Assembly (NCBI RefSeq): GCF_003991905.1
Contig: NZ_RSCL01000047.1
Location: forward strand, 1 to 48,956
Length of the DNA: 48,956 nt
Origin: Dulcicalothrix desertica PCC 7102
Lineage (GTDB): Bacteria > Cyanobacteriota > Cyanobacteriia > Cyanobacteriales > Nostocaceae
Direction: 5' to 3'
A model generated the notes under the pieces. It did no database searches. It was not told where the DNA came from and saw only the letters and a program-made list of their open reading frames with translations. Below are positions 9,592 through 32,442 of the stretch, piece by piece. The position numbers and the translations under genes were made by a program. The first letter of the stretch is position 1, and the number at the start of each line of letters is the position of its first letter.

Positions 9592-9617
9592 GTTATTCAA
9601 TCTACAAGGATATTAAA

Positions 9618-10424
9618 ATGGGAAACATTTGTGTAATTGGTCCACGCGACTCTGGCAAGACAACTTACCTAGCAGGGTTAGCATATTGGCCTGATAAGCA
9701 AAAGAAGATTCAAAAATCTAGTTCATTTAACGTGCAAGCTCTTGGTGATGCCAAGATATTAGAAGAAAAGGCTGAAAATATCATATGTCAAGGAGATTCT
9801 TTGCCTCCTACAGAGATTGCTTCTGGTATCGACGATGCTCCTTTATATCAATTTCAAATTAAAGTAAATACTTTATTAAAAAAAAATGAAGAAATAAATT
9901 TAGTTGTAAGAGATTATCCGGGAGAGATATTTGAAGAGTTAGAGACTGGTTTTTCTAGTTCGCTAAATGAAGAGTTTATTAACGAATCTTTGATAGACGA
10001 TGTTGAAGGTTGTTTAATCCTCTTAAGTGATTGGACGAAAGATAGCGAATACAGCAAGATGCTGAAAAAGTATATAGAGTTAATGGATAAGAAGAGTAGA
10101 CTAAATAAATTACGCCTTGCTGTAGTTATGAGCAAGTGCGAACGGGGAGAGATTTGGTCTGGTCGTTTAGAACCAGAAATGGATATTTTTGATGTTCATT
10201 TACCTAAAACAAAACAGATTTTAAGAGCAAATATCCAAGCTAAAAATTTACAGTTTTATGCTCTTTCAACTTTTGGAGTGTTAGGAAGAAATGATCCTCG
10301 ACCTAATCGGAAAGATGTGCCAGGAAAGAATGGTTCTAATGCTGTACTTAGAGAATCAACACGGTGGAAACCTTATAATATGATCGCTCCTCTATACTGG
10401 TTGAGTAAAGGTCGGAGAATATGA
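9618..10424 (+). CDS. Small GTPase-like P-loop protein (second of the pair)
   Basis: 268 residues from an ATG preceded by AAGGA at 9606. P-loop GPRDSGKT at 8-15, G3-like DYPGE at about 99-103, and a degenerate G4 (SKCE) at about 171. It is paralogous to the GTPase at 15574: both have SGKTTYxAxLA, DYxGE, KDxEYxKxL, KCExxxxW, STFGxLG/SAFGxLG, and a C-terminal APLYWLxKG/APIYWLYKG. The conserved C-terminal signature is specific to this branch and probably contacts a partner. The missing aspartate in NKxD suggests altered nucleotide specificity or weak nucleotide binding. Confidence 0.8.
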   Translation: MGNICVIGPRDSGKTTYLAGLAYWPDKQKKIQKSSSFNVQALGDAKILEEKAENIICQGDSLPPTEIASGIDDAPLYQFQIKVNTLLKKNEEINLVVRDYPGEIFEELETGFSSSLNEEFINESLIDDVEGCLILLSDWTKDSEYSKMLKKYIELMDKKSRLNKLRLAVVMSKCERGEIWSGRLEPEMDIFDVHLPKTKQILRANIQAKNLQFYALSTFGVLGRNDPRPNRKDVPGKNGSNAVLRESTRWKPYNMIAPLYWLSKGRRI

Positions 10425-13370: not shown

Positions 13371-14798
13371 TTATAGATACTTTTGAAAATATTGACGATA
13401 TAGTTCGCAACGTGGTTTTGCATCATTTCCTTCTAGCTTCACAAGCCCAATACTTTCTAGCTCCAATGCTTGGGTTAACTCTAACCGTACTGAAACAGTA
13501 GAATTAACTACATTTCTCATTGCATCTTTTAAGTACGGATGCTTATCCAGAAGAAATAAATAAGCTTCCAGGTGTTCACGATAAATTCCAGTATACGTAA
13601 AAGCTGTCGTTAAAAATTTTTCAATCCTAGTGTGCCGATTACGTGAAATTTCCTTAATGGCAAGCTTTACTAAATAGGGATGTCCACCTACAATTTGCAT
13701 TATTTGCTGAACATGTTCAATATTTAAAGTAAGTTGATACAAATTTCCTAATTGTTTTATCTCCTCAAGTGTCAACTCCAATAGTTCAATATGTTCACCT
13801 ACATTAAAAGGTGATCTATAAATATCATCAATATAAATCTTCCTAGAATATGCTAGTACTAATCTTAGTTTCTTCCAAGTATTTTGCCTTTGAGCTTCCT
13901 CACACCAATTGCGTAAAAGGTCAAAAAATTCATTAGCAATTTTTCGGTTTTTGTCAAGAGAATCAATATTGTCTAAGCTGAGAAGCAATATGCTGTTTTC
14001 TGGGATTTTTTGTAATAGGTTCTCTTCAAAAAAATGTGTACAATTGTACTTGCTGCCATAAGTATTATCCCAATAATCGTTTAAATTACTAGATAAAGGT
14101 ATTTTCAATTCAGATTCATTCAAATGCTTACTAATACAAGCACAAAACCACCTTAAAAATTGATCTAGGCTAGTCTCGGTATCTTCAGGAGAAAACTTTA
14201 AAAGCACTGTTAGATAACCCTGTTTTTTTGCATGATAAATAATCTTATTTATTAGTGATGTTTTTCCCATATGCCAAGGAGCTTTTATCCTAATTACACA
14301 ACCTGGCTGTAATATTGCTTCGTAACAACGATGTTCAAAAGAAGAACGTTCTAAATAGAAATCAGTATCAGTACTATTCTTGTTAGTATCAATTAAAGTA
14401 TCATCTTTCTCATTATTTATGTGTAGAGTTGCTACTTGGCTTAAGTTTGGATAATCTTGCTCTTCATCAAGATAACAATAGTCATATTTAGTTGCTTGTA
14501 ATCCTAAGCATCTAAAAAGCTGTTCTATAGATTGTTTATCAGCTCCATCCTCCCTATTCATTATTTTGCTAATAGTATCAACGCTAAGTTTAGACTTTTC
14601 GGCTATTTCTTCATTAGTAAGCTTTTCTCCAGTTTCACTTTCTCTGAAGGCATCATTGAGTTTTTGCCATCCTTGTTCAGTCAGAATACGACCACGCCGA
14701 CGTTTTCTCCTTTGTTGTTCCTGCATTAACTCCTTTAACTCCTTTAAATTCCTTAAGTATTTAATTTTATTGCTATATATTTTTAAAACATTAAACAT
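13371..14798 (-). CDS. HTH plus AAA-like ATPase regulator
   Basis: A 475-residue cyanobacterial regulator-like protein. Residues about 30-110 carry a basic stretch (QQRRKRRRGRILTEQGWQKL) and a helix-turn-helix (LTNEEIAEKSKLSVDTISKIMNRE), the N-terminal module I associate with cyanobacterial AAA-like proteins. Residues about 145-470 are an AAA-like domain with Walker A PWHMGKTS at about 174, Walker B ILLLSLDNIDS at about 267 and GGHPYLVKLA, followed by a winged-helix tail ending in LYRQYFQKYL. It is the first gene of an operon with the transmembrane AAA sensor. The two could form one pathway, with the sensor's ATPase modulating this likely DNA-binding protein. That link is inferred. Confidence 0.8.
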   Translation of the reverse strand: MFNVLKIYSNKIKYLRNLKELKELMQEQQRRKRRRGRILTEQGWQKLNDAFRESETGEKLTNEEIAEKSKLSVDTISKIMNREDGADKQSIEQLFRCLGLQATKYDYCYLDEEQDYPNLSQVATLHINNEKDDTLIDTNKNSTDTDFYLERSSFEHRCYEAILQPGCVIRIKAPWHMGKTSLINKIIYHAKKQGYLTVLLKFSPEDTETSLDQFLRWFCACISKHLNESELKIPLSSNLNDYWDNTYGSKYNCTHFFEENLLQKIPENSILLLSLDNIDSLDKNRKIANEFFDLLRNWCEEAQRQNTWKKLRLVLAYSRKIYIDDIYRSPFNVGEHIELLELTLEEIKQLGNLYQLTLNIEHVQQIMQIVGGHPYLVKLAIKEISRNRHTRIEKFLTTAFTYTGIYREHLEAYLFLLDKHPYLKDAMRNVVNSTVSVRLELTQALELESIGLVKLEGNDAKPRCELYRQYFQKYL

Positions 14799-15573: not shown

Positions 15574-16488
15574 ATGCTCGACTGGTTAAAAAAAGTTAAT
15601 AAACAAGAAGAAAATAGCCCTGGAGCAACTTCAGTTAGTTTGACGATTCGGGTGATTGGCGATCGTGCTTCTGGTAAAACCACGTATATGGCATCTTTAG
15701 CTCGTTGGGCTTATGCTGACTTGTCTAGCCCAGTGCAAGCTGTTGAGGCTTTTAATGAAGATGGCAAAGTGCTGAAAAGTCAAGCGCAAAATATGTTGGA
15801 GCAAGGGTTACAGCTAGAACCAACTCCGTTGACTGAAAATACTAATGCTTTACGAGATTATGGTTTGAGCATTATTTTAAAACGTCAGTTTTCTTTGCAG
15901 AGTCCCAATCTCAATCCTGCCAGTCAACGTTTAACACTGAATATCAACTGCAAAGACTACTCAGGAGAATTTTTTACTGACCTGCTGTACCGTGAGGACG
16001 ACCCTTTACTGGAAGATTATGTAAATGATTGTTTAGAGGCGGAAGGAATTTTGTTTTTGTTGGATGGGATTGCCCGTACTAAAGATGCAGAGTACGCCAA
16101 GGGATTAGATAAGTTTTTGGATGCTTGGGGACAGGCTGATAAAAGTGGTAAAAGGCGCCGTATCGCTCTAGTGTTAACTAAATGTGAACAGCCAGACTTA
16201 TGGGTAAATCGTCACAAGCCTAAAGATTTAGCAAAAGCACGCTTTCGCCAAGTGTGTACAAAATTAGAAACTTGGCAGCAATTAGGTAAAGGTAGTGTAG
16301 AGTATTTTGCAAGTTCAGCTTTTGGAATGCTAGGAACTCGTCAACTAGAGGCGAATGTCCAGAAAATACGTCGTGACCGTGATGGCGTTGCCTCCGTTCT
16401 ACTAGACCCCAGTGTCTGGCGCCCATTCGGCTTAGTTGCTCCTATTTATTGGCTATATAAAGGTGAGCGTCACCCAGGATTAGATTAA
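15574..16488 (+). CDS. GTPase-like P-loop protein heading the vWA operon
   Basis: A 304-residue P-loop protein. Walker A GDRASGKTT at 29-37, G3-like DYSGE at 128-132, and a degenerate G4, TKCE, at about 202. C-terminal signature WRPFGLVAPIYWLYKGERH. It is a paralog of the protein at 9618 and shares its unusual KCE and terminal YWLYKG signatures. Eleven nucleotides separate it from the next gene. It probably partners with that membrane protein, as GTPases of this type do in conflict systems with a dedicated GTPase-associated protein. One GGCGCC site occurs in the middle and another near the end, unlike the 9618 paralog, which has none. Confidence 0.8.
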   Translation: MLDWLKKVNKQEENSPGATSVSLTIRVIGDRASGKTTYMASLARWAYADLSSPVQAVEAFNEDGKVLKSQAQNMLEQGLQLEPTPLTENTNALRDYGLSIILKRQFSLQSPNLNPASQRLTLNINCKDYSGEFFTDLLYREDDPLLEDYVNDCLEAEGILFLLDGIARTKDAEYAKGLDKFLDAWGQADKSGKRRRIALVLTKCEQPDLWVNRHKPKDLAKARFRQVCTKLETWQQLGKGSVEYFASSAFGMLGTRQLEANVQKIRRDRDGVASVLLDPSVWRPFGLVAPIYWLYKGERHPGLD

Positions 16489-16499
16489 GGATTAAACCC

Positions 16500-18452
16500 A
16501 TGACTTCTATTCAGATTCACGAATTTAGCACTGGTATTCGACCACAAATCAATGCAGATGGTAGCTGGGTGTCACTGGGTTTCACTGGGCAATACATGAA
16601 TGTAACTATTAATGCGATACCTCATGCCGTAGAGCGTTCAATTGCCAATAAGGAATTTGCCGTTGCAGAAGGTGCATTTGGTGACCAACCAGCCGTTATT
16701 GGTCGTGTAGTGTTAGATAGCACAACTTCTGACTGGTCAGTTGTAGCTGTCGTGAGTAGAGGGCAGGATGAAAAAGGACGCAGTGCTTCTTTTTATCGTT
16801 ACTTTCTGTGCGAAGGACGAGATAATCTATTAAATATAGTTTTATGGATGGAGGAGTATGAGCGAAAAAATCAATGCAAACCTGTTTTTAACCCCTCAGA
16901 AACTAAAGTACTAGGGCAAGCAACTCCATTTAATGCTCAAAATACCTCGTATCCTCCGAAGGAATTACTGCAAAACAGCACCTCTACACCAATCATTATT
17001 AACTCTGACAAGCGATACAGCTTACAGCAGATTAACGCTTCGGCTGCTGCTTTAGCCAATGGTCAACCTGTTGCATGGGCGTTTAATGCAGAGGCACTAG
17101 AAAAGCCTTTGAGTTTTATCGTCATTCAGGCAGCAAGCGAGCGCGCTTATCAAATATTGCAAAGGGCAGCAGCTAATACTCCTAAAGTTCAAACTCCGCT
17201 AGTTGTAGACGAACAAGCCCTTAAGTCAGCGATTAAAAGTTTAATGGGTAGTTCGACTGTGAAACCGGAGGTAGTTGGTATTATTGCAGAAGCTTTAAGT
17301 AACAAACAAGTAAATCAACAATACTGGGAAAATTTATTTGATGGGCAGGGTGCGATAAATGCTATCCGTCAGAAAATTTATAGCCCGCAAATGGTAAGAT
17401 TATTAACCCTAAGAACATTGATCATTCCACAAAAATTAGGAGAATATTTAGATTGGTTAGAGATTAAGAATAATGCAAATAAAAGAGATTTAAATTCTAA
17501 TATAACCTGTTCATTAGAATTTCAAGCTAATTTAATACCTACGCTTCCAGACTCTTCTATTGTTCAAAATAATTTAAACTATTTATTTAAACAGATAGAA
17601 GTATATAATCCTCCTGCCAATGTACTCGATAATATAGGAGATTACTGTTTAGACAAATTGCACAATAGAGAATTAGCATTACTTTATTACCGATTTGCTA
17701 TTTATTTTACTGCTCGCACAAATAAAAATAATGTAATATCAGACAAATTATTTAAAAAAGCATTTTCTAACAGTAGAGGTCAAGAAAATGTTTTTGGTAG
17801 AACGGTTTATTCAGAACAGTACAGGAGAGACCAGGGAGAATCAGACGTGCCAAAGCATATTGTAATTGTTTTTGTATTACTCAGCTTTTTTTTAGGAGGC
17901 TTGGGTGGTTTTGTTTTATCAGAAATGACTAGAGAACCACAAACTGCAACAAATAACGCAAAAACACCTCCTGATGCAGTAGGTACAGATATGTCTCAAC
18001 CCAGCAACCCTAATAATAATCTTAACATTACTGCCTCAAATAATAATCAAATAACGCCAATACCAAAAGGTAAAAAACAAAAGGACGCTTTCGATAAGTT
18101 TGAAAAAGTAACAATTCCAGTAATTAATAAAATAATAAATGATTTAGATAAACAAGAAAAATCGTTACCAGATGGTGTAACTAGACTAAATATTATTGCA
18201 GCGCTTAAGGAAACATTAGGTAATTCAAATTTAAATGAAAGTGTATTGGATAGTAGTATAGAGCCAATTCCAGAATTAAAAAATGATTGGATTAATACCA
18301 TTTATTCATACCAATTACAAAAACAACCTAATCAACCTGCAAAAGCCGAAGGATATATTCTACCGACAGGAAATGTCATTAAATCTCTTAAACAAGATGT
18401 GGAGAAAAATTTGAAAAAAACGTCTATACCTGTGGCGCCTCTAGGGAATTAA
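16500..18452 (+). CDS. Putative GTPase-associated membrane-anchored protein
   Basis: A 650-residue protein. Residues 1-145 form a compact N-terminal domain with IHEFSTGIRPQ, AVIGRVVLDSTTSDWSVVAVVSRG and RYFLCEG, which resembles the N-terminal domain of GTPase-associated proteins (GAP1-like) in conflict systems. That assignment is from memory and needs a profile search. Residues about 150-450 are helical and unassigned. One strong membrane helix is at about 451-474 (IVIVFVLLSFFLGGLGGFVL), followed by a polar Asn/Thr-rich linker and a C-terminal domain (about 520-650). The N-terminus is expected in the cytoplasm beside the GTPase. The gene lies between the GTPase and the FHA-like protein with very short gaps. 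Confidence 0.6.
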   Translation: MTSIQIHEFSTGIRPQINADGSWVSLGFTGQYMNVTINAIPHAVERSIANKEFAVAEGAFGDQPAVIGRVVLDSTTSDWSVVAVVSRGQDEKGRSASFYRYFLCEGRDNLLNIVLWMEEYERKNQCKPVFNPSETKVLGQATPFNAQNTSYPPKELLQNSTSTPIIINSDKRYSLQQINASAAALANGQPVAWAFNAEALEKPLSFIVIQAASERAYQILQRAAANTPKVQTPLVVDEQALKSAIKSLMGSSTVKPEVVGIIAEALSNKQVNQQYWENLFDGQGAINAIRQKIYSPQMVRLLTLRTLIIPQKLGEYLDWLEIKNNANKRDLNSNITCSLEFQANLIPTLPDSSIVQNNLNYLFKQIEVYNPPANVLDNIGDYCLDKLHNRELALLYYRFAIYFTARTNKNNVISDKLFKKAFSNSRGQENVFGRTVYSEQYRRDQGESDVPKHIVIVFVLLSFFLGGLGGFVLSEMTREPQTATNNAKTPPDAVGTDMSQPSNPNNNLNITASNNNQITPIPKGKKQKDAFDKFEKVTIPVINKIINDLDKQEKSLPDGVTRLNIIAALKETLGNSNLNESVLDSSIEPIPELKNDWINTIYSYQLQKQPNQPAKAEGYILPTGNVIKSLKQDVEKNLKKTSIPVAPLGN

Positions 18453-22593: not shown

Positions 22594-22744
22594 ATAACTT
22601 TCTATAAATTGATTAGGGTGCATTAAATTTTGTAAACATATTTGACAAATCTCACGAGCATCAAAAAACGACTTGATGATTTATAGTTAGACATTTGTTT
22701 TCATGAAAAATTCAATATTTTATTGTACCTATTTCTCTAATCCT

Positions 22745-24469
22745 ATGAAAAGGTTTATATCTACTCTACTGTTATTAATAATCTATGGATGTAATAATTC
22801 TCAGACTTCAGAGAATCAAGCCAAGCAAAACTTAAGTAATTGTTCAAACAAATCTACAGTTCCACTAGAGAGCCAGGATGCAAAGCCAGTCGCATTAGGT
22901 GAACAGACTGTATTAGAAACTGGAATAGTTAATCAAAGCAAATTTGTCGGGTATACTTTTCAGGGAAAAGCGGGTGAACGTCTGAACTATCAAACAAATC
23001 AAGATATTTGCGTTTTAGTTTTCACACCAGGGCGCCAGTTACTGTATGACCCCATTTTACCCACAACTGGCAGATACACGATTCAAGTTGCTGCTGTTAA
23101 AGGTTCTACTACCTTCGAGTTGAAAATGAGTTTGGGCAATGCGAAAGCTTTTTCTTTTCAACCAACACAACAAAATGTAAAATTGGCGTACAACGTTACA
23201 ACATCACCAACCTTTCAGCATAGTCAGAAGTTACAAGGGATTATTAATGAACTACTAAATCTGGCTGCCGCAAAAGGAATGCCACAAAATGCTTTATCAA
23301 TAACCTTAATCAACGTGAACACAGGTGAATTTGCAGATTACCAACAAGAACAACTGAGGTATCCTGCAAGCGTTGCGAAACTATTTTGGATGACACTTCT
23401 CTACGGTGAGCTTCAAAAAGGTATTTTACAAGATGAACAAGCCTTTACTGGCGACCTAGAGAAAATGCTTGTCAAATCAGATAACGAAGCAGCTAGCCGT
23501 ATTATCGACCAAATTACCGAGACAACATCTGGGTCTAAGCTAGTAGGCAAAGATTTGCAGACTTGGCTTAGTAAACGCTACCAAATGAATTCTTTTTTTG
23601 AACAAGCAGGCTATGGAATGATTGATATCAGCCAAAAGACTTTTCCTATTCCCAGTGAAAAACTTTATGAACCTAAAGGTCGTGATTTACAAATGCGTGG
23701 CGACCTCCAAAAGCCCATTCGTAACAAAATTACAACTCAGCAAGTTGCCAGACTTATGTACGAAATTGTTAAAGAACAGGCAGTTTCACCGGAATACAGC
23801 AAGAAAATGGCGGGATGGCTATCTAAAGATTTGAATCTAGAAATTTGGCAAAAACTTGACCCCAATGCTGGAGAATTCAACCCTGTACGTACTTTCTTTG
23901 GTGAGTCTTTACCGAAGGATGTTTACTTCTTATCCAAGGCTGGTTGGACTAGCTCTACGCGGCAAGAAGTAGCATTTATCAAAACTAATAACGGTAAAAA
24001 TGCTTATATATTAGCTATTTTCGCCGAAGATAAAACTTATGCTAAAGATGGAAACATCTTTCCAAAAATGTCGCGGTTGGTTTTCGACCGGATGGTTAAT
24101 GGTGGGGAGATTGCTTCTGCTAAATCTGCTTCTTTCCCTGAGCAATCAAATCAATCTCTCGGTTGGATTAGAATAGGCGCCGTAGATAAAGGAGCAAGCA
24201 ATACTTTGGTTGGAGAACCTCTAGTTTCCACAGCTATACCTATAAGCATCTCATCACCAACCGTGCCCCCTGTTGGCAAGCAAGTAACACTCTCGGTGGC
24301 AGCTAATTTACGAAAAACCCCACCGCAACCACCAAAATACGAGTTGATAGACAAAATTGGTATATCTCAACCAGGACAGAAAATAGTTATACGTAAGCTA
24401 GAGGCATTTATAGACCCTAATACTAATCCTGCCTATAAAACAGTTTGGGCAGAAGTCGGTTCACCCTAA
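22745..24469 (+). CDS. PPC-like lipoprotein with class A beta-lactamase fold
   Basis: 574 residues from the ATG that gives a clean lipoprotein signal (LIIYGC); an earlier start is possible. PPC-like domain at about 30-130, shared with the two upstream genes. The serine-hydrolase domain (about 155-435) has all three penicillin-binding motifs: SVAK (S209, K212), SDN (245-247) and KAG (398-400, in place of KTG). The acidic Glu166 equivalent is not obvious, so it may act as a peptidase or peptidoglycan enzyme rather than a lactamase. Residues about 470-574 end in an SH3-like segment (VTLSVAANLRKTPP), which would bind the cell wall. Its stop is nearly adjacent to the convergent ubiquitin-like gene. 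Confidence 0.82.
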   Translation: MKRFISTLLLLIIYGCNNSQTSENQAKQNLSNCSNKSTVPLESQDAKPVALGEQTVLETGIVNQSKFVGYTFQGKAGERLNYQTNQDICVLVFTPGRQLLYDPILPTTGRYTIQVAAVKGSTTFELKMSLGNAKAFSFQPTQQNVKLAYNVTTSPTFQHSQKLQGIINELLNLAAAKGMPQNALSITLINVNTGEFADYQQEQLRYPASVAKLFWMTLLYGELQKGILQDEQAFTGDLEKMLVKSDNEAASRIIDQITETTSGSKLVGKDLQTWLSKRYQMNSFFEQAGYGMIDISQKTFPIPSEKLYEPKGRDLQMRGDLQKPIRNKITTQQVARLMYEIVKEQAVSPEYSKKMAGWLSKDLNLEIWQKLDPNAGEFNPVRTFFGESLPKDVYFLSKAGWTSSTRQEVAFIKTNNGKNAYILAIFAEDKTYAKDGNIFPKMSRLVFDRMVNGGEIASAKSASFPEQSNQSLGWIRIGAVDKGASNTLVGEPLVSTAIPISISSPTVPPVGKQVTLSVAANLRKTPPQPPKYELIDKIGISQPGQKIVIRKLEAFIDPNTNPAYKTVWAEVGSP

Positions 24470-24477
24470 CCTATATA

Positions 24478-25071
24478 TTAAATTTTTACAGCAGTGTTAC
24501 GGTATCCAAGGGAAATATCGTCACACCAATCACGTAAAATTTTGTCTATCTCAAAAGCTTTTACCTCCCTTGACGCTATTTCTTGCAGCGCATTTATAAA
24601 ACTTTGGCGTTCGCGCGCGTTGGAGTCGCTGAAAAAACGCTGCGGGTTATCTTCGTAAAACTCTGTAAGCTCGATAGGATAGTCGTAAATTTCCGTTTGC
24701 TGATTATCGCTAAGTACTGTCAGTTGGAGTTTATACGTAACTAGCGATATGGCTTTTGCTGAAGTTGCAGTTTCCAGTTGTACCTTGGAGAAAGCACCTG
24801 AATGCGAATTGCTATTCCCTGCTGACTGCACAGAAGGAATGAGTATTATTTTGTCACCTGACCTAACACCCGCTTCCCTAAAAGTTAGGTTATCCCTTAA
24901 TATTTCATTAGTTCTTTCTAAGAAAAGTCGGCAAGGTGGATTCTCTGGTAATCCCAGTAGCATCTGCACTGCTTGCCGAGATTCATTTAGTTGAGAGTCC
25001 AGCAAAATATCTTTGAGGGTTTTCTCGGCACTACCATCCTCTATTTGAAATGTAACCACAATTTCAGTCAT
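24478..25071 (-). CDS. Ubiquitin-like beta-grasp protein
   Basis: A 197-residue protein. Residues 1-80 look like a YukD/EsaB-type ubiquitin fold: a first strand IVVTFQIED, a helix, then LFLERTNEILRDNLTFREAGVRSGDKIILIP, which follows the ubiquitin pattern of a beta strand, a short turn and the closing strand. The C-terminal half (about 105-197) is a second domain with TYKLQLTVLSDNQQ and a helical end. No C-terminal Gly-Gly is present, so it probably is not conjugated. It lies 172 nt downstream of the SPFH-like gene, the last in the minus-strand operon. No E1- or E2-like genes were seen. Confidence 0.7.
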   Translation of the reverse strand: MTEIVVTFQIEDGSAEKTLKDILLDSQLNESRQAVQMLLGLPENPPCRLFLERTNEILRDNLTFREAGVRSGDKIILIPSVQSAGNSNSHSGAFSKVQLETATSAKAISLVTYKLQLTVLSDNQQTEIYDYPIELTEFYEDNPQRFFSDSNARERQSFINALQEIASREVKAFEIDKILRDWCDDISLGYRNTAVKI

Positions 25072-25243
25072 TCTCAGCCATTGTATAAATTAGTTAATTT
25101 GATGTAATTATTTTTCATTAGCTAGAGAGCTACGCGATGTGGAATTGTATGTGCTATTATACAGTGTTCTATGAAAAATTTAATCTATGCTTAGTGTTCA
25201 TCAATCTTCTTCTTGATTGCTAGCACTTACTATTACGCTTAGA

Positions 25244-28060
25244 TTAAGAATCTGAATTGCTTTGGCTAGGTGGTAGATTCATTTGTTCTTCAAATAATAA
25301 AGAATTCCGACCCTTATTTTTGTTAGGCTCTAGTAACTGAAGACTGCTTTCAGCATCCTCAAGAGAGGGGTTGAGAAGTTCTTGTTCTAAACGGTTTATT
25401 TTAGCCTCTAAATTTTGAAGTTCATCCGCTTCGGCATCAGGGTCTGCAATCAGTTTTGCTTTTCGCTCATATAATTTATCAAGTTCTACAGATTTTGCTT
25501 GATTTCTTCTTGAGGACATTTCAAGCTGCTTTTTACGTAGCTCTGTTCTTGCTTGAATCTGTGCTAAAGCCTCATCAACTTTTGCTTTTTCCAATGTTTG
25601 TTGAGCTTTGAACACATAAGTTTCTTGCTCAGTACGAGTACGAGACAAATTTCGTATACTAATTTCCAAACCGTATTGATCTATAACGCTTCCCCTTGCC
25701 CACTCGTTGATGTAGCGTTCCATAGTAGACAATAGTTGAATATCTGTATATCTAAGTAACTCACTGCCAGCATTCATCAGTTTTGAGTTAATGCTTTTTT
25801 CAATAGAGTTTTTGATTTCAGATATGCCACTAGTCTGGCTTTCTATTTTACTAATTTCCTCACTTATCTCCTCTAATTCCTCACTATTATCTTCTATATC
25901 TCCTGCTTTAATTAGCTTAGAGTATTGTTCTTTCAACGCTTTAAGTTTTTGCCGCAACTGCTGCTGCGACTGCTGCATAGATTGAAATACAGATTGAAAT
26001 CTATACCAACTACCTGTCTCAATACCTAATATTTTAAAGTCTCCTTTAAAATTAACAACTTCTCCACCACTCAACGGAGTAATACTACACTCGAATGAAC
26101 CTATCATCCCCATTAGTGTTTGTAAATAGTCAATAATTTCTGTTTGTTCTGGAATAGGGACAATACTAATAATTTCGGCACCAAAACGTTCTTTTAATGT
26201 TGCTTCAATTGTCTCTTTTAATTCTTGTTCGACAGATTTCTCTACATGTGTTTCAGCAACATAGAAACGCATATAAAAACGTTCTGGCTCAATCCTACGC
26301 AACACTTCCCTAGTTGTGCTATTTACTACCTTTCGCATTTCTTCAATAATTTGAGATACATTACCATTCAGATAATCCTCAATTTTATTGAAATTTTTAA
26401 ATTTAGCGTTAATACTAGTACTGAGTTTTACTTTGATACTGGCAGTATTAGTTGAGAACTGTTGGTTTTCATCTAAAATTTCAAAATTTTCTTTTAGTCT
26501 AAGATGTTCGATTCTTGGTAGAGAAACAATATGTTCTACTGCATAACCAATAGAAGCAGCTTCTCTTTCCATTGCTTCTCGAATCTTTTGAGAATCTTTT
26601 TGAAAATCATCTAGGATATCTATGTACTTCTTTGTTAACAACAAAGGTTTAATTATTTTTTCCAGTTTGCTCTCAACCCATGCTTGTAAATTAGGAGATT
26701 GTGCAGAAATATACCTTCTCACATCTTGAGGTAACATCTGAAGAGTGTTTTCTACACGTATTGGTCTTGAATAGTTTTGAACCTTACATTCAACTGTATG
26801 TTGTATTTCAACAAGTTCTTTTGGCGGTGGTGAGGAATTAGCTACCTTGCTATCTAGATATAAATAGCTAATTATGCGACCTTTATCAGCTAGCTTTTGA
26901 TTTAAATAATCTACTAAACCATTTCTAACTTTATCTTTTAATTCATAATAAAAATCACTGATTTTAGTATGTAATTGCAAATAATTTTTTATTTCTGTGT
27001 TCAACAGATTAGTTAGTTGTATAGTTCCCCATCTATTTGAATGTGAAATTGCTTTGATGCGGTCTAAAACTAATAATTCTGTTTGAATAGTTAGGTCTAG
27101 TGCCTCATCAGAATCAGAAACACGGACAGTAATTTCTGAAGGAGGAATTACTATAGTTTCAACCTGTTTGGTTAAAGAAATGTTTAAATCAAGTTGAATA
27201 CCAATTTCTTCTCTCGCAGTAATTTGTAAATATTGTTTTAATGCTGTAACTTTTCCTGAATATTGGTCGATAAATTCACCCTCGCGTCCACGAAGGTGAT
27301 AATTAACCCAGTATTTAATTTTTTTATCTATTTCGTCTCTTATCGGTTTACCGGTAGTAAACAGTTGTTGAGCTACTTTTTCTCTATCTATAGGATCATA
27401 GCTAGCACGGTAAGCGAGAGTAATACTTAACTGGCGACTACTAGCAACATCCTCTACTTCAATAATCAAGCCACTACGTTCAGCAATATTTGAAGCATCT
27501 TTGTTACTGAAAACTAGGTTACGGGCATCTTGTGTTTGAATAGGCGAAATTCTCAAATCAAGCCTTAGACCAGCTTCATTTCTAGCTTTTGTTTGGAGAT
27601 TATTTTGCAATTTTTTAATTTCATCAAAATAATTATCGATGAAATCAGCAACGCGGTCGCGGGTAAATTCAATCACCCATCTTCTTATTTTTTTATCGAG
27701 TTCTGCTTCTGGAGAAGTATCACTATGGAGTGCTTTAGCTACTTTTTCTTCATTATTATTCTTATCAGCTTCACAACTAGCACGATAAGTTACAGATATA
27801 CCCAACGTCCGATTATTAGAAAAATCTGTAATTTCTATTCTTAATTCTCTAGGCTCAGAAAAAATAGAAGAATCGTTAGAAACTATATAATATACTAAGT
27901 TGCCGCCAAAAGATATCGTTGGTATTTTCGCTTGGGTTTCCCCTGTTCGTTTGTCAACTACTACAACTTTTCCTGTAGAATAGTTATTTTTAGCTCTAGC
28001 AACTGCTTCGGCTCTTTCTACTTTCCGGATTACATCATAGAGAAAATTTTCTTGACTCAT
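25244..28060 (-). CDS. Protein with five to six tandem SPFH (band 7)-like modules
   Basis: A 938-residue soluble protein. By eye the same module repeats: a beta-rich half with a conserved YRAS or similar strand, then a helical half ending in GLRLDLRIS or GIQLDLNIS, the signature of stomatin/SPFH domains. Modules lie at about 48-172, 183-305, 310-405, 412-525 and 530-650. The region 655-860 looks like a sixth with a long coiled-coil insertion. The C-terminus (830-905) is a Glu/Lys/Gln coiled coil. There is no signal peptide or membrane helix. SPFH proteins form cage-like oligomers on membranes; this one has several modules in a single chain. It lies 10 nt from the upstream gene, in the protease operon. 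Confidence 0.62.
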   Translation of the reverse strand: MSQENFLYDVIRKVERAEAVARAKNNYSTGKVVVVDKRTGETQAKIPTISFGGNLVYYIVSNDSSIFSEPRELRIEITDFSNNRTLGISVTYRASCEADKNNNEEKVAKALHSDTSPEAELDKKIRRWVIEFTRDRVADFIDNYFDEIKKLQNNLQTKARNEAGLRLDLRISPIQTQDARNLVFSNKDASNIAERSGLIIEVEDVASSRQLSITLAYRASYDPIDREKVAQQLFTTGKPIRDEIDKKIKYWVNYHLRGREGEFIDQYSGKVTALKQYLQITAREEIGIQLDLNISLTKQVETIVIPPSEITVRVSDSDEALDLTIQTELLVLDRIKAISHSNRWGTIQLTNLLNTEIKNYLQLHTKISDFYYELKDKVRNGLVDYLNQKLADKGRIISYLYLDSKVANSSPPPKELVEIQHTVECKVQNYSRPIRVENTLQMLPQDVRRYISAQSPNLQAWVESKLEKIIKPLLLTKKYIDILDDFQKDSQKIREAMEREAASIGYAVEHIVSLPRIEHLRLKENFEILDENQQFSTNTASIKVKLSTSINAKFKNFNKIEDYLNGNVSQIIEEMRKVVNSTTREVLRRIEPERFYMRFYVAETHVEKSVEQELKETIEATLKERFGAEIISIVPIPEQTEIIDYLQTLMGMIGSFECSITPLSGGEVVNFKGDFKILGIETGSWYRFQSVFQSMQQSQQQLRQKLKALKEQYSKLIKAGDIEDNSEELEEISEEISKIESQTSGISEIKNSIEKSINSKLMNAGSELLRYTDIQLLSTMERYINEWARGSVIDQYGLEISIRNLSRTRTEQETYVFKAQQTLEKAKVDEALAQIQARTELRKKQLEMSSRRNQAKSVELDKLYERKAKLIADPDAEADELQNLEAKINRLEQELLNPSLEDAESSLQLLEPNKNKGRNSLLFEEQMNLPPSQSNSDS

Positions 28061-28070
28061 ATTTATCTCC

Positions 28071-30416
28071 TTAGTTGCTCTCTAAATTTTCTTGTTGTAA
28101 TGCTTTAAATCGTTTTTTCAATTCTCTCAGTAGTTTTCTCCTAATAATAAACTCTTTCTTTAACTCTTTATTGCCAGATTCTTCATACTGTACAGATTTA
28201 TCTAAATACTCCTCTGTGAGTTCTGTCCAACGCTCCGTAATCTGTCTTTGTTGTGAACGAGAGGCTATCAAAATAATACGACGAAGTAAGTTATCGAATA
28301 AATTCAAAGCTTCTTTTTCTGGTTCTTCATCTTTAAATCCCCATATAATCACGAACCATTCTGCAATAAAAAAGCCAATTGTTTCCAGAGGGTTATTTTC
28401 ATCAATTTCAAGCATTTCCAATACATATTTGACGGCCAGATCTCCGTTCTGACTCGGATATAACAACCAACTAACTAAAGTATCGAATTCTTCATTTACA
28501 TTGCTATCAGGACTACCTTTTAATGGCGCAAACAGAGGATATACATAGTATCCTTTGCCATACCATTTTAAATCTAATTTTAATGTGGTTTCTCCACAGT
28601 AAGCAAATAACAGCAACAATCCAGCTATATTTGATGGAGAGTATCGTGCTGGCGAAGTATCTTTTTCAGGCAACCATTCCTTTAGAATTTCTAGTAATTC
28701 ATAAATATATAAATGAAAGCCACTTTGCCATAACGTCTCTTCCAGTAAATTATAAATATCTGATTTAATATCACTGTATTTATTATTGATTTCGTCTTCT
28801 TCCTGTTCTAAATCTTCACTATCTAACAATTGCCTCAACCAATTTAATATATTTCTTGCCGATTGCATTCCTAGCAATCCAGTACGTAAATGTAAGTATA
28901 TTAAATATCTAATAATTGAAAAAGCCAGCTTACGATACTGTGGACTTATCAATCTATCTAAAAATTTTTGAGCTATGGTTTCAGAATGTAAATACTCAGG
29001 CTCAATTTGTAAACGATAAATTAACCTTGACAATCTTTCAAGTAAAATATCTTGTTTCTTCTCATCCTCATCGGCAATTTTAATGAGGAGTTCTATTAGC
29101 CAATCTTCTGCATAATTATTAGGAGAATAAACTGCTGTTTTGACTGCTATATTAATTGCATTATCCGCAACTTCCTGAGAAGAATCAAGTAATAAATCTA
29201 GTTCTTGTGTGCGTTGCAATTGTTGCTCAAAGTAAAAGATTTGCTCACTCTCGAAATAAGCTATAAAATTTTCTCTTAATTCAGGATGAGAGAAAGTAAT
29301 AACCTGTTTTCCATCTTGACGCTCAACTTTTAAATGGCACTTCTTTAAATATTGGTCAGGTTTATCAAAGCTCTCTTGCCAAATTTCAGTTAATTCCTTT
29401 GTTTTTGCTTCTTCAATAAAGGGAGTATGGGATTGAAACTGATAATTTGGAAATGCTCCTGCATTATTAAGTGGGACACCGATTCCAGGTTGGAAACCAA
29501 CTCCAATGTTTCCTCCTCCTCCATTCGGGTGATTATTTGCCGAATTCCCAAATCTTATATCATTATTAAAAACTGGTGTATTAACTGGAATAGATTTTTT
29601 TCTACCTTTTAGTAATAATCCAACAACTCGCTTAAAATCTTGAGCATTTAATCCTGGAAATAAAGTTGCTACATAAAAGACTGTGTTTTCAATATCCTGA
29701 TCTTCTTTGAACAAAGTCGTAGCTGATATTATCTCAATTTCTGATGAATCATTTTTATGACTTTGTTCATGATTTTTATTTTTAGTAGCATTTCTTTTAT
29801 TAAGTTCATCTTTAATTTTTTCTGTCTCTTCCTCACGCTGTTCTAGCTTTTCTTTAACCTGTTGACTTTCAGACTCAAGCTTCTCTATCTTTTTCTTGAG
29901 TGTACGTTTTTGGCTTTGAGAGTCAGTTTCGTTATAATCTTCGTCTAAACCTTCTATTTCTTCACGTAACTTATTATAGTTTTTATCTAAATGTTCTATC
30001 TCTTTTTGATATCGTTCCCGCCATGTTTCTAAAATATTATCTGGAATATCCTTATATTTATTTTTCTCTTTATCTTCTTCTGTTGGGGATTGATTAGGAA
30101 ATTCGCCTTTGCCACCTTTATGACTAGTTCCTTTTTTATTAAATGGGTTTTTAGAGCTTACATCAGCTGACGCTGCATTTATATCGTCTAAACCCTTATT
30201 AGGTATTTTGCTGCTTCTTTCCTGATGCAAGTTAGTTGGTGTCGTTGTTACACCAATCTCTTTCTCACTTGTTACTTGATTAACAGCAATCTTTCCCTGT
30301 GTGCTACTGCTTTGTAATTGATTTTTTTCTTCACTAGCAGCAGATATATCTGGAGTACTAGTAGCGTTTTCCTGTTCTGTTTCTTGATTATTGGCAGAAA
30401 AGTTTTCATCTATCAT
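28071..30416 (-). CDS. Large protein of unknown function: disordered, coiled-coil and helical parts
   Basis: A 781-residue protein that I cannot assign. Residues 1-120 are low-complexity (Ser, Asn, Gln, Glu); 128-210 are a coiled coil (WRERYQKEIEHLDKNYNKLREE). A conserved-looking element ATLFPGLNAQDFKRVVGLLL follows at about 245, then a Gly/Asn-rich linker near 295-315. The C-terminal 450 residues are helical, beginning with VITFSHPELRENFIAYFESEQIFYFEQQL. There is no P-loop. It resembles a large scaffolding or effector subunit. The gene lies 25 nt after the protease gene and 10 nt before the SPFH-like gene, so it is a likely partner of both. Confidence 0.5.
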   Translation of the reverse strand: MIDENFSANNQETEQENATSTPDISAASEEKNQLQSSSTQGKIAVNQVTSEKEIGVTTTPTNLHQERSSKIPNKGLDDINAASADVSSKNPFNKKGTSHKGGKGEFPNQSPTEEDKEKNKYKDIPDNILETWRERYQKEIEHLDKNYNKLREEIEGLDEDYNETDSQSQKRTLKKKIEKLESESQQVKEKLEQREEETEKIKDELNKRNATKNKNHEQSHKNDSSEIEIISATTLFKEDQDIENTVFYVATLFPGLNAQDFKRVVGLLLKGRKKSIPVNTPVFNNDIRFGNSANNHPNGGGGNIGVGFQPGIGVPLNNAGAFPNYQFQSHTPFIEEAKTKELTEIWQESFDKPDQYLKKCHLKVERQDGKQVITFSHPELRENFIAYFESEQIFYFEQQLQRTQELDLLLDSSQEVADNAINIAVKTAVYSPNNYAEDWLIELLIKIADEDEKKQDILLERLSRLIYRLQIEPEYLHSETIAQKFLDRLISPQYRKLAFSIIRYLIYLHLRTGLLGMQSARNILNWLRQLLDSEDLEQEEDEINNKYSDIKSDIYNLLEETLWQSGFHLYIYELLEILKEWLPEKDTSPARYSPSNIAGLLLLFAYCGETTLKLDLKWYGKGYYVYPLFAPLKGSPDSNVNEEFDTLVSWLLYPSQNGDLAVKYVLEMLEIDENNPLETIGFFIAEWFVIIWGFKDEEPEKEALNLFDNLLRRIILIASRSQQRQITERWTELTEEYLDKSVQYEESGNKELKKEFIIRRKLLRELKKRFKALQQENLESN

Positions 30417-30441
30417 TAGTACTTAATCCTCCTTTTTATAA

Positions 30442-31341
30442 TTACTCTTGAGTCAGTTCGTCAATCTCAGTTAGCAGCGTTTCTACCTTTAGTTCGTGTG
30501 GCTGAAGCTCTCGTTCGTAACGTTCTTTTTTTTGATTCAGCATACGCTGCCGTGTCAAATCGTCTCTATGCTCGTTAATCTCAACATCTATTAATTCAAT
30601 TAGTTCTTGCAATTCTTTAGACTGTTTCTCGGCAAGATTAAGCTCTCTCTTAAGTCGCTCTATTTTTCTCTGCATGGCAGGAGTCATACTACCTCCGCTC
30701 TTTATTTTTTCAGCACTAGGTTTACTAATTAAATTTTGAGGCATTCCTTTTCCTTGCCAAATCTTGCCCAAAGCCTCTATAGAAATAGCCACCCCCTTAC
30801 CTTGCCCTGTTAACTGAGCAACCACCCCCAAAACATAGCCACTGGCTTTATCAACAACAGGTGAACCGCTATAACCTGCTTTCAAGTCATGTTCACTATC
30901 ATTACTAATTTCTAAATTCCAGGCAGGAGTGCGATCACTTTCTTCCAGTATTATTTGTGTTCCACCTAACTTGCCACTAATAGAAGCTAGCTTACGGGTC
31001 TTTGTGCCGTCAGTGTAACAGCCGGATGCAATAAACTCTCTTCCCTTTTCGGCAACTACACCTAGCTTTAGTGATGGTAGTTTAGTCAATCCATCTTCAA
31101 CTGCTAAAACAGCTAAATCACAGCCTTGCCTATTACCCGAAGCAACTTCTTCCTTTGCAGGATAACCACCAACTTTTACTCTACCTACTCCTCCGACTTC
31201 TTCCACTACATGAGCGCAAGTCAACACATAAGTTATATGTTCATCCTGATGAATCACAAATCCTGTGCCAAAGTTTCCACCGTAATCAGTCGTATCAGTG
31301 CTAGTAATTAAAATAATTGAGTCTGAAAAATTTTGATTCAT
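30442..31341 (-). CDS. Trypsin-like serine protease with helical C-terminal adaptor
   Basis: 299 residues. A chymotrypsin-fold domain fills about residues 5-195, with catalytic His44 (TCAHVV), Asp75 (CDLAVL) and Ser158 (AGYSGSPV), so it should be active. No signal peptide, so it acts in the cytoplasm. The C-terminal 85 residues (from about 215) are a charged coiled-coil region (MQRKIERLKRELNLAEKQSKELQ). In conflict systems such short helical tails act as effector-associated adaptors; this tail is not one I can name. The ATG overlaps the stop of the preceding Trypco1 gene (ATGA), so they are coupled. Confidence 0.87.
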   Translation of the reverse strand: MNQNFSDSIILITSTDTTDYGGNFGTGFVIHQDEHITYVLTCAHVVEEVGGVGRVKVGGYPAKEEVASGNRQGCDLAVLAVEDGLTKLPSLKLGVVAEKGREFIASGCYTDGTKTRKLASISGKLGGTQIILEESDRTPAWNLEISNDSEHDLKAGYSGSPVVDKASGYVLGVVAQLTGQGKGVAISIEALGKIWQGKGMPQNLISKPSAEKIKSGGSMTPAMQRKIERLKRELNLAEKQSKELQELIELIDVEINEHRDDLTRQRMLNQKKERYERELQPHELKVETLLTEIDELTQE

Positions 31342-31655
31342 GGTTCATTATTAGGTTTTATTACTAATTTCACTTTCAAATTGCTACTAGCTCTAGCTTT
31401 GGTAACGTATACACTGCCTTCACCTTCAAAACCAAAGCTGATTTCAACTTCAGCTTGCTCAATCTGCATTTCTTTATCTAATTCTTTCCAAGCCGCAGCT
31501 ACCGGACGACAAGCCTTTACCAATATCGGCTTAATTTTGTCAAAAGTAGCATTAACTCTATCGGCAGTACTAGCAGCAATCTGCCTTGCTTGATCATCTG
31601 GCACTTCTACCTCTATTAAAGTGCCATCTTCTAACTTAATTAGTTTGGTAGCCAT
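31338..31655 (-). CDS. Trypsin-co-occurring domain 1 protein (Trypco1, CU044_2847 family)
   Basis: 105 residues from the ATG 6 nt after GGAG; an ATG two codons earlier abuts the ribosome site and is less likely. The family pattern is clear: LIKLEDGTLIEVEVPD, then a helix, EVEISFGFEGEGSVYVTKA and a final strand LKVKLVI. Members occur next to trypsin-like proteases in bacterial conflict loci, where they are thought to regulate or present the protease. Here the gene is first in the operon, directly before the protease and translationally coupled to it. Confidence 0.88.
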   Translation of the reverse strand: MATKLIKLEDGTLIEVEVPDDQARQIAASTADRVNATFDKIKPILVKACRPVAAAWKELDKEMQIEQAEVEISFGFEGEGSVYVTKARASSNLKVKLVIKPNNEP

Positions 31656-32442
31656 TATCATCTCCTGGTAAATATAAATGCATTTTTTTGGTAGAACCGT
31701 ATCTTCAATAGGTTTTAGATTTGACCGCCAGGATAAAGATAAGGGCTAGCTTGCGACTCATCTCTCCGTAAACTAGTGCTTTGTATTGCCCAATAAATCT
31801 TTTCAACCTTGTATTTGGATTTATTTTAAGCTTACATTACAACATAACATCGGTTTATACTGATAATGCGACAGATTTTGTAAAAAAATTCTAAAGTTTT
31901 ACCTAAAATACTTAAGTATAGTAACACATCAATAACCAATTCTTCTAAGAAACACAGGGATAGCCCCTTGTAATAAAGGTTATCGTTATTATTCTTAGTG
32001 TGCTTACTTTTATACAAATAGTATGTCTGCTAAAGATGATAACCTTGGATATCTGATATCTTGACATAGTACTAAAGGACTTCCAAATAAAAAAATCTCC
32101 AATATTTTCTTGTGGAATGGGCATCCTGCCTGTTCATTCAAAGGAGGTGTTCGCTTAGGTGCCTACCCCACAAGATGGAGAATTAAATTTTTGGAAGTCC
32201 CTAAGATTAGTTTCAAATCCTGCAATTGCAGCTAAAAACCGTTACCGCAATAGTTATCTCCCTTGAAACAGGCGCCCACTTATAGCTGCATCACCAGTTC
32301 TCTTCATTTGTAACAGGCCAGGTAAACTCTCCATAGCGCTACTCCCCTTCGCAGTTTTTAACTAGATAACAACCACGCTCGCAGGCGCCACCTATCACAA
32401 CTAGGGTATTGTAAAAAATAGCCTGCTTTTATAATTATCAAA
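31656..32442. other. Divergent intergenic region between the protease operon and parB
   Basis: About 790 bases. It contains the promoters of both operons and a 127-bp inverted-repeat element (32075-32201). The rest is AT-rich. Two GGCGCC sites near 32272 and 32385 mark the return to backbone sequence. A 61-codon minus-strand frame at 31832-32017 has no supporting evidence. Confidence 0.5.
32075..32201. mobile_element. MITE-like inverted-repeat element with TA target duplication
   Basis: The ends are inverted repeats of about 25 bp (GGACTTCCAAATAAA at the left, TTTGGAAGTCC at the right). Inside lies another inverted pair, CTTGTGG..TGGGCA and TGCCTACCCCACAAG. TA flanks it on both sides (32073-32074, 32202-32203). 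No coding capacity. TA duplication and long inverted ends suggest mobilisation by an IS630/Tc1-type transposase. Confidence 0.75.

What the first reader, a model, noticed from the sequence alone, without database searches (positions are those of the whole stretch)
24478..31655. Trypco1-protease operon with a ubiquitin-like protein at its end
Trypco1, a trypsin-like protease with helical adaptor, a large helical protein, a tandem SPFH-like protein and a ubiquitin-like protein form one minus-strand operon. The first two are known partners in conflict loci; the last three are not, to my knowledge. No vWA-MoxR component is adjacent, although a vWA gene is in the facing operon.
Basis: partly seen in the sequence, partly recalled or inferred. 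Interest (0 to 1): 0.85.

Follow-up and report, generated by a model that had tools for sequence, protein, structure and literature searches.

The report
Modular SPFH–STAND protease conflict system
In a cyanobacterium, five neighbouring genes encode parts of what looks like a previously undescribed bacterial cell-death or immunity machine: a multi-part scaffold related to membrane-organising proteins, an inactive relative of animal immune sensors, a swappable protein-cutting enzyme, and a ubiquitin-like connector that appears to plug it into the cell envelope.

The parts
31338..31661 (-). Trypco1 protein (107 aa), trypsin-co-occurring adaptor
   Evidence: PF19493 E 2.3e-11 and NCBIfam CU044_2847 7e-12; 4 bp overlap with the protease gene
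30442..31341 (-). Effector: trypsin-like protease (299 aa), residues 25-173, His44/Asp75/Ser158 readable, then a C-terminal coiled-coil adaptor (about 226-297)
   Evidence: PF13365 3.4e-14; motif positions, catalytic assignment by eye; C-terminal adaptor shared with a TIR (L008) and a caspase (L010) protein
28071..30416 (-). 'HEL' (781 aa): N-terminal coiled coil about 133-204, then STAND-like winged-helix and helical-repeat part about 225-781; no Walker A motif
   Evidence: Homologous to P0100-P0103, E 9e-43 to 1e-19; the model of a relative matches Avs4/Avs3/Apaf-1; no G....GK[ST] (motif recalled)
25244..28060 (-). Tandem-SPFH scaffold (938 aa): about six beta-beta-alpha-alpha-alpha-beta units (residues 51-812), C-terminal coiled coil
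24820..25071 (-). Ubl domain (residues 1-84) of the 197-aa adaptor; no diGly at its end
   Evidence: RAD23 UbL E 6.5e-4; 42% identity to the Ubl ending ...GG of the E1-Ubl-E2-JAB cassette of the same genome
24478..24759 (-). 'UBLC' domain (residues about 105-197) of the adaptor, with stop codon
   Evidence: Homologous to stand-alone 126-129 aa proteins in vWA/FHA/kinase/lipoprotein operons (L061-L064)
15574..16488 (+). Facing operon: DO-GTPase-like protein
   Evidence: PF19993 2.6e-8, over cut-off; relatives beside the L012 and L013 systems
16500..18452 (+). Facing operon: 650-aa protein, one predicted TM, no Pfam hit
   Evidence: relative in L012
18458..19540 (+). Facing operon: 360-aa protein with four predicted TM; C-terminus FHA-like by eye only
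   Evidence: relative in L012
19473..20768 (+). Facing operon: vWA protein, exported-looking (signal judged by eye)
   Evidence: PF13519 1e-6; relatives in L005, L012, L013
20678..21568 (+). Facing operon: lipoprotein-like protein (by eye)
   Evidence: relatives in L005, L013, L064
21634..22593 (+). Facing operon: lipoprotein-like protein with ARC6-like IMS domain
   Evidence: PF13355 3.9e-24
22703..24469 (+). Facing operon: lipoprotein-like protein with beta-lactamase2-fold serine hydrolase; convergent, 8 bp from the Ubl gene
   Evidence: PF13354 6.3e-16; relatives in L005, L013 and, catalytic part only, L011

Best explanation
This is an envelope-coupled, NLR-like protease system, most likely for cell suicide or growth arrest upon attack (phage or envelope breach). 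Shown by sequence or model: a tandem-SPFH scaffold and an inactive-STAND-like regulator form the invariant core; an exchangeable effector (here trypsin + Trypco1) shares a coiled-coil module with that regulator; a Ubl-UBLC adaptor follows. Inferred: the SPFH protein assembles a ring or cage at the membrane. The Ubl half of the adaptor docks on it, and the UBLC half docks on the DO-GTPase/vWA/lipoprotein module encoded by the facing operon, which watches the cell wall. A disturbance there changes the assembly; the STAND-like protein clusters the protease through coiled-coil pairing; induced proximity (with Trypco1) switches it on; its cuts kill or arrest the cell. In relatives the same envelope input comes from Ubl-TM-SH3/IMS proteins or a Zorya-like proton motor, and the same output from a caspase, CHAT or TIR domain. 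Likelihood in my judgement: architecture about 0.9; facing operon belongs to it about 0.75; immunity or cell-death role about 0.65; this order of steps about 0.35.
For: Recurrence: STAND-like gene upstream of, or fused to, the SPFH gene in 21 of 22 loci (L041 cut). HEL+SPFH+GUN4 in a single ORF in L018. Effector upstream in 18 of 18 informative loci, four enzyme types. SPFH fused directly to caspase (P0043), TIR (P0055) or CHAT (P0048). Locus-specific similarity of effector and HEL coiled coils over 9 loci: p = 8e-5, with controls against the SPFH coiled coil (p 0.32) and the rest of HEL (p 0.44). AAA+/STAND-type fold of a HEL relative. Ubl next to SPFH in 10 of 10 cyanobacterial loci with a separate SPFH gene. 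UBLC form in exactly the 4 of 10 loci with DO-GTPase or vWA genes beside them. ZorA/ZorB-like genes in 6 of 8 informative non-cyanobacterial loci (in L014 both Pfam hits are under cut-off). Sparse distribution: 2 of 386 cyanobacterial genomes, the window's own included. Mobile setting: relaxase, ParB, DnaB-like, IS630-type transposase.
Against: No phage or toxicity data. PADLOC gives no convincing defence family: the protease matches LmuA (7e-12) and others by its fold, HEL only JetC (1e-4) and ZorA3 (0.018) through its coiled coil, SPFH and Ubl nothing. The coiled-coil signal rests on four loci (L009, L011, L012, L013; without them p 0.21). In the window the pair beats shuffles (z 5.7) but is not specific: 86 with its own HEL, 85 with L008's HEL, and the window HEL scores higher with the tails of L007 (102), L008 (100) and L010 (91). 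The window's HEL has lost the NTPase part that defines STAND proteins, and the relative's structure matches are modest (TM-score 0.13-0.23). No TM helix is predicted in the window's SPFH, HEL or Ubl protein, so membrane attachment is inferred. The UBLC correlation rests on 10 loci, two on contigs under 10 kb and one (L009) with only 1.2 kb upstream; L011, on the 'without' side, has a relative of the serine hydrolase. Zorya-type and Ubl parts can also serve housekeeping roles.
Confidence: 0.6

Rival explanations
1. Housekeeping membrane/protein quality control: a cyanobacterial counterpart of HflK/C-FtsH or prohibitin-protease complexes, in which an SPFH cage confines a protease.
For: SPFH matches to prohibitin, HflK/C and flotillin; a protease in the same operon.
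Against: The trypsin is replaced by TIR (2 loci) or CHAT/caspase (5 loci); TIR replacement in particular is not what a quality-control protease predicts. 2 of 386 genomes only; mobile setting.
Confidence: 0.15
2. Ubl-centred regulation: the Ubl protein is itself conjugated or is a substrate, and the operon protease removes or degrades Ubl-marked proteins.
For: E1-Ubl-E2-JAB cassette inside the L037 locus and E2-JAB in L041; such a cassette elsewhere in the window's own genome (L057).
Against: No diGly after the window Ubl, which continues into linker+UBLC; in 6 loci the Ubl is N-terminal to a TM-type protein; no E1/E2/JAB among the 30 window ORFs scanned.
Confidence: 0.1
3. A truncated or rearranged VMAP/iSTAND MoxR-vWA ternary system that borrows MoxR from elsewhere in the genome.
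For: Trypco1-trypsin pair; three further Trypco1 genes in the genome (their neighbours were not examined); PMC7159879 describes Trypco1 in VMAP systems.
Against: No MoxR found in the window; the SPFH/HEL core is fixed while Trypco1 is optional (4 of 9 cyanobacterial loci with upstream flank). The other neighbourhood genes of L005-L018 were not all scanned for MoxR.
Confidence: 0.07
4. A motor-less derivative of Zorya.
For: ZorA3 model 1e-12 (L015) and ZorB1 model 1.7e-15 (L017) for the genes after SPFH; 6 of 8 informative non-cyanobacterial loci have such a pair.
Against: HEL and SPFH of L016 and L017 match no Zorya component in PADLOC; no MotA/OmpA among the 30 window ORFs scanned.
Confidence: 0.05
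5. Chance neighbours on a gene-rich plasmid-like contig.
For: Many conflict genes nearby.
Against: Conserved order across distant taxa.
Confidence: 0.01

Closest known systems
iSTAND / iSTAND2 / VMAP MoxR-vWA ternary conflict systems (PMC7159879: passages and sections 16, 26, 27, 30; PMC8195603: passages)
   Same: Inactive STAND-type third component, exchangeable trypsin/caspase/TIR modules, adaptor domains shared by core and effector
   Different: No MoxR found; the fixed partner is a tandem-SPFH protein; the vWA gene sits in the facing operon and looks exported; Ubl-UBLC or Ubl-TM adaptor
Zorya (ZorAB + ZorCD / E / FG; PMC11890865 and PMC8565338, passages)
   Same: Non-cyanobacterial relatives carry MotA/ExbB + OmpA genes matching ZorA and ZorB models
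   Different: Soluble parts are STAND-like + SPFH + protease; no motor genes found in the window
Avs / NLR-type STAND immunity (Avs4, Avs3, Apaf-1 as structure matches)
   Same: HEL relative has NTPase-like, winged-helix and helical-repeat layout
   Different: No Walker A motif; effector is a separate gene; structure matches are modest
SPFH scaffolds (prohibitin, flotillin, HflK/C, vault shoulder)
   Same: SPFH fold
   Different: About six tandem copies and a coiled-coil tail; direct fusions to caspase, TIR and CHAT domains in relatives
Bacterial Ubl conjugation operons (E1-Ubl-E2-JAB)
   Same: Window Ubl is homologous to their Ubl
   Different: No diGly; fixed fusion, apparently an adaptor
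DO-GTPase (GAP1) systems (PMC7159879, section 27)
   Same: DO-GTPase-like gene in the facing operon
   Different: No GAP1 Pfam hit among the scanned ORFs; PMC7159879 calls these systems nearly completely absent in cyanobacteria

Membership tests
Trypco1-trypsin pair | Trypco1 gene next to a trypsin-like protease gene | tested here: met
   again in L009, L013 and L012
VMAP / iSTAND ternary system | MoxR AAA+ ATPase | tested here: not met
   none among the 26 window ORFs of 180 aa or more; the rest of the genome was not searched for it
VMAP / iSTAND ternary system | vWA partner | tested here: inconclusive
   vWA gene only in the facing operon and exported-looking
iSTAND-type protein (HEL) | STAND NTPase fold without Walker A | tested here: inconclusive
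   supported for the relative L015; the window HEL shares only the winged-helix/helical part
SPFH superfamily | SPFH/Band 7 fold | tested here: met
SPFH superfamily | ring/cage assembly at a membrane | not testable with these tools
   no TM predicted; assembly needs experiment
Ubiquitin-like proteins | beta-grasp Ubl domain | tested here: met
   by sequence homology only; no model was made of it
Ubl conjugation system | C-terminal diGly on the Ubl | tested here: not met
   window Ubl runs into a linker; cassette Ubls of L057 and L058 end in GG (L060 in GGA, L037 in AGEK)
Ubl conjugation system | E1/E2/JAB beside the Ubl | tested here: not met
   not found among 30 window ORFs; present in L037
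Zorya | ZorA + ZorB | tested here: not met
   no MotA/OmpA Pfam hit among 30 window ORFs; present in relatives L014-L017 (L014 under Pfam cut-offs) and, by blastp to L017, in L039, L040
Zorya | ZorC/D/E/F/G | tested here: not met
   HEL and SPFH of L016, L017 and of the window: no such PADLOC match
Effector-associated (EAD-type) adaptor | same module on core protein and effector, closest within a locus | tested here: met
   met for the set of 9 loci, p 8e-5 with two negative controls, carried by four loci; not specific for the window pair itself; EAD9 itself only 0.0034, under cut-off

The most novel reading that the evidence does not exclude
A new class of bacterial immune machine: an inactive NLR-like (STAND) protein on a tandem-SPFH cage acts as an apoptosome-like platform with two plug-in sockets. 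One takes a death effector (trypsin, caspase, CHAT or TIR) by coiled-coil or amyloid-like pairing. The other takes an envelope sensor (Ubl-TM-SH3/IMS, a Zorya-type proton motor, or a DO-GTPase/vWA/lipoprotein module). In cyanobacteria a once conjugable ubiquitin-like protein was turned into the fixed plug of the second socket.
Probability: 0.45. Interest if true: 0.92.

Novelty: new variant of a known kind. Interest (0 to 1): 0.82.

Why it matters
SPFH proteins (prohibitin, flotillin, stomatin) organise membranes across life (recalled), yet in the passages I saw a role in bacterial immunity is only hinted at (Band7 domains in vWA proteins, PMC7159879). Here SPFH scaffolds are wired to NLR-like proteins, caspases and TIR domains, with a ubiquitin-like adaptor and, in relatives, a motor-type proton channel pair. 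That would link parts of animal cell death and prohibitin biology in one small operon, and it makes clear predictions: which proteins bind, which module senses the wall, and which enzyme kills.

Tried and rejected
Plasmid collection: no match for the SPFH protein (tblastn) or for the operon DNA. Viral contigs: 38 pattern matches, none a relative. PDB sequence profiles: A2 and A4 gave only coiled-coil-type or marginal hits. NCBIfam and PADLOC: HEL matched only coiled-coil regions far under any cut-off (ASRP 5e-4, JetC 1e-4, ZorA3 0.018), the Ubl protein only NCBIfam chance hits (0.03 or weaker), SPFH nothing. Pfam IQ_SEC7_PH on the Ubl protein (4e-4, under cut-off) was taken as chance. An amyloid-like motif shared by non-cyanobacterial effectors and HEL N-termini was tested: L015, L016 and L017 z 3.5-3.9, L014 not significant; suggestive only. 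An SPFH repeat in the L012 trypsin protein (E 4e-7) was kept as a lead; L012's SPFH helped build that profile (A6), so the hit is not fully independent. Sequence self-comparison supports only SPFH units 1 and 2 as clear repeats (z 29; other pairs z under 3); the remaining units rest on the model. VIA's list does not resolve every unit, since one domain fills most rows. No second SPFH or HEL match in the own genome.

Rows dropped before counts: L019, L021-L036 and L044-L056 (search duplicates or small extracts); L020 (20,485-bp contig, same as L007); L018 (fused form at a contig end) from the effector and Ubl counts; L006, L038, L041 (contig cut) from the effector count; L038, L041, L042 (cut or broken SPFH frame) from the motor count. 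L039 was kept although its SPFH match spans one TGA. The 19 Ubl proteins have no known context and entered no locus count. Of 9 genomes with a stand-alone UBLC match, I looked at the neighbours in 4 (L061-L064). L015's MAG label (Flavobacteriaceae) may be mis-binned: 1 of 395 genomes of its order, its own, has the family, and its HEL is closest (65 and 58%) to P0100 and Parabeggiatoa's L017.

Literature (held library only; no bioRxiv, few subscription papers); lists were capped (20 of 42,389; 2 of 2; 20 of 157; 15 of 57; 10 of 290; 12 of 93; 10 of 49; 10 of 81). Among the 20 listed one held both SPFH and Zorya (PMC13239085, listing only, oak-decline phages). Absence from print is claimed only for these lists.
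Full report
1. What is there. Five minus-strand ORFs run from 31661 to 24478 with one 4-bp overlap and gaps of 25, 10 and 172 bp. Pfam recognises Trypco1 (PF19493, 2.3e-11) and a Trypsin_2 domain (3.4e-14); the other three have no family above its cut-off in Pfam or NCBIfam, and no convincing one in PADLOC (HEL has coiled-coil matches to JetC 1e-4 and ZorA3 0.018). His, Asp and Ser of the protease are readable (assignment by eye), so it is probably active.

4. Recurrence. One scan of genome contigs gave 14 loci. Profile searches of sampled genomes hit 2 of 386 cyanobacteria (own genome and that of L007), 6 of 42 in the order of Parabeggiatoa (L017's genome included), 3 of 396 in the Acidobacteria phylum (those of L014 and L016 included) and 1 of 395 in the order of L015 (its own). 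New places gave seven loci, L037-L043. Window + L005-L018 + L037-L043 make 22 distinct loci. HEL lies upstream in the same cluster or is fused in 21; L041 is cut. It is the neighbouring gene in 16 (L006 from its C-terminal part only), separated by a few genes in 4 (L037, L039, L040, L042) and fused in 1.

5. Effector socket. In all 18 loci with a separate HEL gene and upstream sequence there is an effector upstream: trypsin 11 (window, L005, L009, L012, L013, L015, L017, L037, L039, L040, and a fragment in L042), caspase 3 (L010, L011, L043), TIR 2 (L007, L008), CHAT 2 (L014, L016). Window, L007, L008, L010-L012 and L014-L017 were named by Pfam, the rest by blastp to these. Trypco1 is present in 4 of the 9 cyanobacterial loci with upstream flank (window, L009, L012, L013); L005 has trypsin without it. 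The complete five-gene set is thus in 4 of 9. Effector tails and HEL N-termini share a coiled-coil module: over 9 loci the within-locus Smith-Waterman sum is 984 against 614 (sd 75) for shuffled pairings, p 8e-5. Against the SPFH coiled coil p is 0.32, against the rest of HEL 0.44, so it is not a general coiled-coil effect. L009 (220), L011 (160), L012 (135) and L013 (115) carry it; without those four p is 0.21. The window pair scores 86 (z 5.7 against shuffles), no better than with L008's HEL (85), and the window HEL scores higher with the tails of L007, L008 and L010 (102, 100, 91). L005, L007 and L010 pairs are weak (z 2.8-3.6).

6. Envelope socket. In 10 of 10 cyanobacterial loci with a separate SPFH gene (window, L005-L013) the Ubl domain gene follows SPFH. 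In six (L006-L011) the Ubl is followed by a TM segment and then an IMS domain (L006, L010, L011), SH3_3 domains (L007), pentapeptide repeats (L009) or nothing recognised (L008, whose TM score is borderline) (the TM of L011 was not computed, its layout follows L010). VanY peptidase genes lie next door in L007 and L010. In four (window, L005, L012, L013) it is followed by UBLC. Outside cyanobacteria, 6 of 8 informative loci have a MotA/ExbB gene and an OmpA gene after SPFH: L015-L017 by Pfam; L014 by Pfam hits under cut-off plus the ZorA3 model (2.9e-10); L039 and L040 by blastp to L017. ZorA models match in L014-L017 and ZorB models in L016 and L017, the only ones scanned. L037 has two TM+SH3_3 proteins, each SH3_3 just below cut-off; L043 has TPR and caspase genes.

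7. Ubl history. L037 holds E1 (ThiF 9e-51), a Ubl (YukD 2e-5, just under cut-off), E2 (UQ_con 1.6e-6) and JAB (2e-7) between HEL and SPFH; L041 has E2 (2.7e-5, under cut-off) and JAB. The window's own genome has such a cassette on contig C71 (L057; E1 only as a C-terminal fragment at the contig's end); its 82-aa Ubl ends in GG and is 42% identical to the window Ubl (E 4e-15). The window Ubl has no GG and runs into a linker. A Ubl also ends a caspase-nSTAND1 protein in L059. So the domain looks like a conjugation Ubl recast as an adaptor; the direction of change is inferred, no tree was made.

8. The facing operon. The Ubl-UBLC profile hit 14 of 386 cyanobacterial genomes; in 9 of them the match is UBLC alone, and I looked at 4. 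There UBLC is a 126-129 aa protein (L061-L064). Recognised neighbours include vWA (L061, L062, L064), a 360-aa membrane protein relative (L062), a partial relative of the 650-aa protein (L061), lipoproteins (L063, L064) and the serine hydrolase (L064), all relatives of the window's facing operon, plus a second vWA, FHA and PP2C gene (L064, by Pfam) and a kinase (L061, by Pfam). In SPFH loci, DO-GTPase, vWA or the 360/650-aa genes occur beside 4 of 4 Ubl-UBLC loci and 0 of 6 Ubl-TM loci: p 1/210, or 1/70 if the two short contigs L006 and L008 are dropped. Caveats: L009 has little upstream sequence, and L011 (Ubl-TM side) has a relative of the serine hydrolase's catalytic part. L012 and L013 are only about 33% identical to the window in SPFH, so shared descent does not easily explain it. 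I conclude that the two facing operons probably form one system and that the Ubl protein joins them.

9. Mechanism. See Best explanation. Steps shown: parts, order, folds, shared coiled coil. Steps inferred: assembly, docking, sensing, activation by proximity, cell death.

10. Compared with the known. PMC7159879 (passages; abstract and outline; sections 26, 27, 16 and 30) describes Trypco1, EADs, iSTAND and Band7 as an effector-position domain; in what I saw it has no SPFH-STAND pair. PMC8195603 passages add iSTAND2 and TERNS3, both MoxR-vWA systems. PMC10907252 passages use Trypco1 as an adaptor in VMAP-type loci. Zorya III uses DUF3348 and DUF2894 (PMC8565338 passages); PMC11890865 and PMC12505986 were seen as passages. 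The capped lists showed no paper on this combination. The nearest kind is STAND-centred conflict systems, so I file it as a new variant; its core pair belongs to no described system I could test.

Noticed in passing
window 46141-48930: LRR-ROC-COR protein with a C-terminal EAD1 domain: another conflict-type gene on the same contig.
   Followed up: no
window 10485-13361 and 13371-14798: Two AAA_35 proteins, one with TPR and a weak periplasmic-binding-like match; an AAA_35 gene also follows the Ubl gene in L012 (13412-14680).
   Followed up: partly
window 8857-9591, 9558-10424, 15574-16488: DO-GTPase-like genes (the first under cut-off) in a cyanobacterium, although PMC7159879 calls such systems nearly completely absent there.
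   Followed up: partly
L057 (G000:C71): E1 fragment, two Ubl genes, E2 and JAB followed by a conjugative coupling-protein-like ATPase (T4SS-DNA_transf 1e-19) in the same genome; a similar 573-576 aa gene also follows JAB in L058 and L060.
   Followed up: partly
L015, L016, L017, L037, L043 effector C-termini and HEL N-termini: Short Gly/Asn-rich beta-like motifs resembling amyloid signalling sequences (resemblance recalled); weak statistical support in L015-L017, the others by eye.
   Followed up: partly
L059:5527-8334: Caspase-nSTAND1 protein of 935 aa ending in a Ubl-like domain.
   Followed up: partly
L017:861-1280, L015:2071-2448, L039:3101-3496, L040:314-700: Small protein family directly before trypsin (hydrophobic segment computed for L017 and L015 only): a possible new trypsin companion in the place of Trypco1.
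   Followed up: no
L037:10334-10696: Zinc-ribbon-like protein of 120 aa beside the E1 gene (under cut-off).
   Followed up: no
L042:4011-5277: SPFH gene of an otherwise similar locus is broken after about 200 residues; only described.
   Followed up: no
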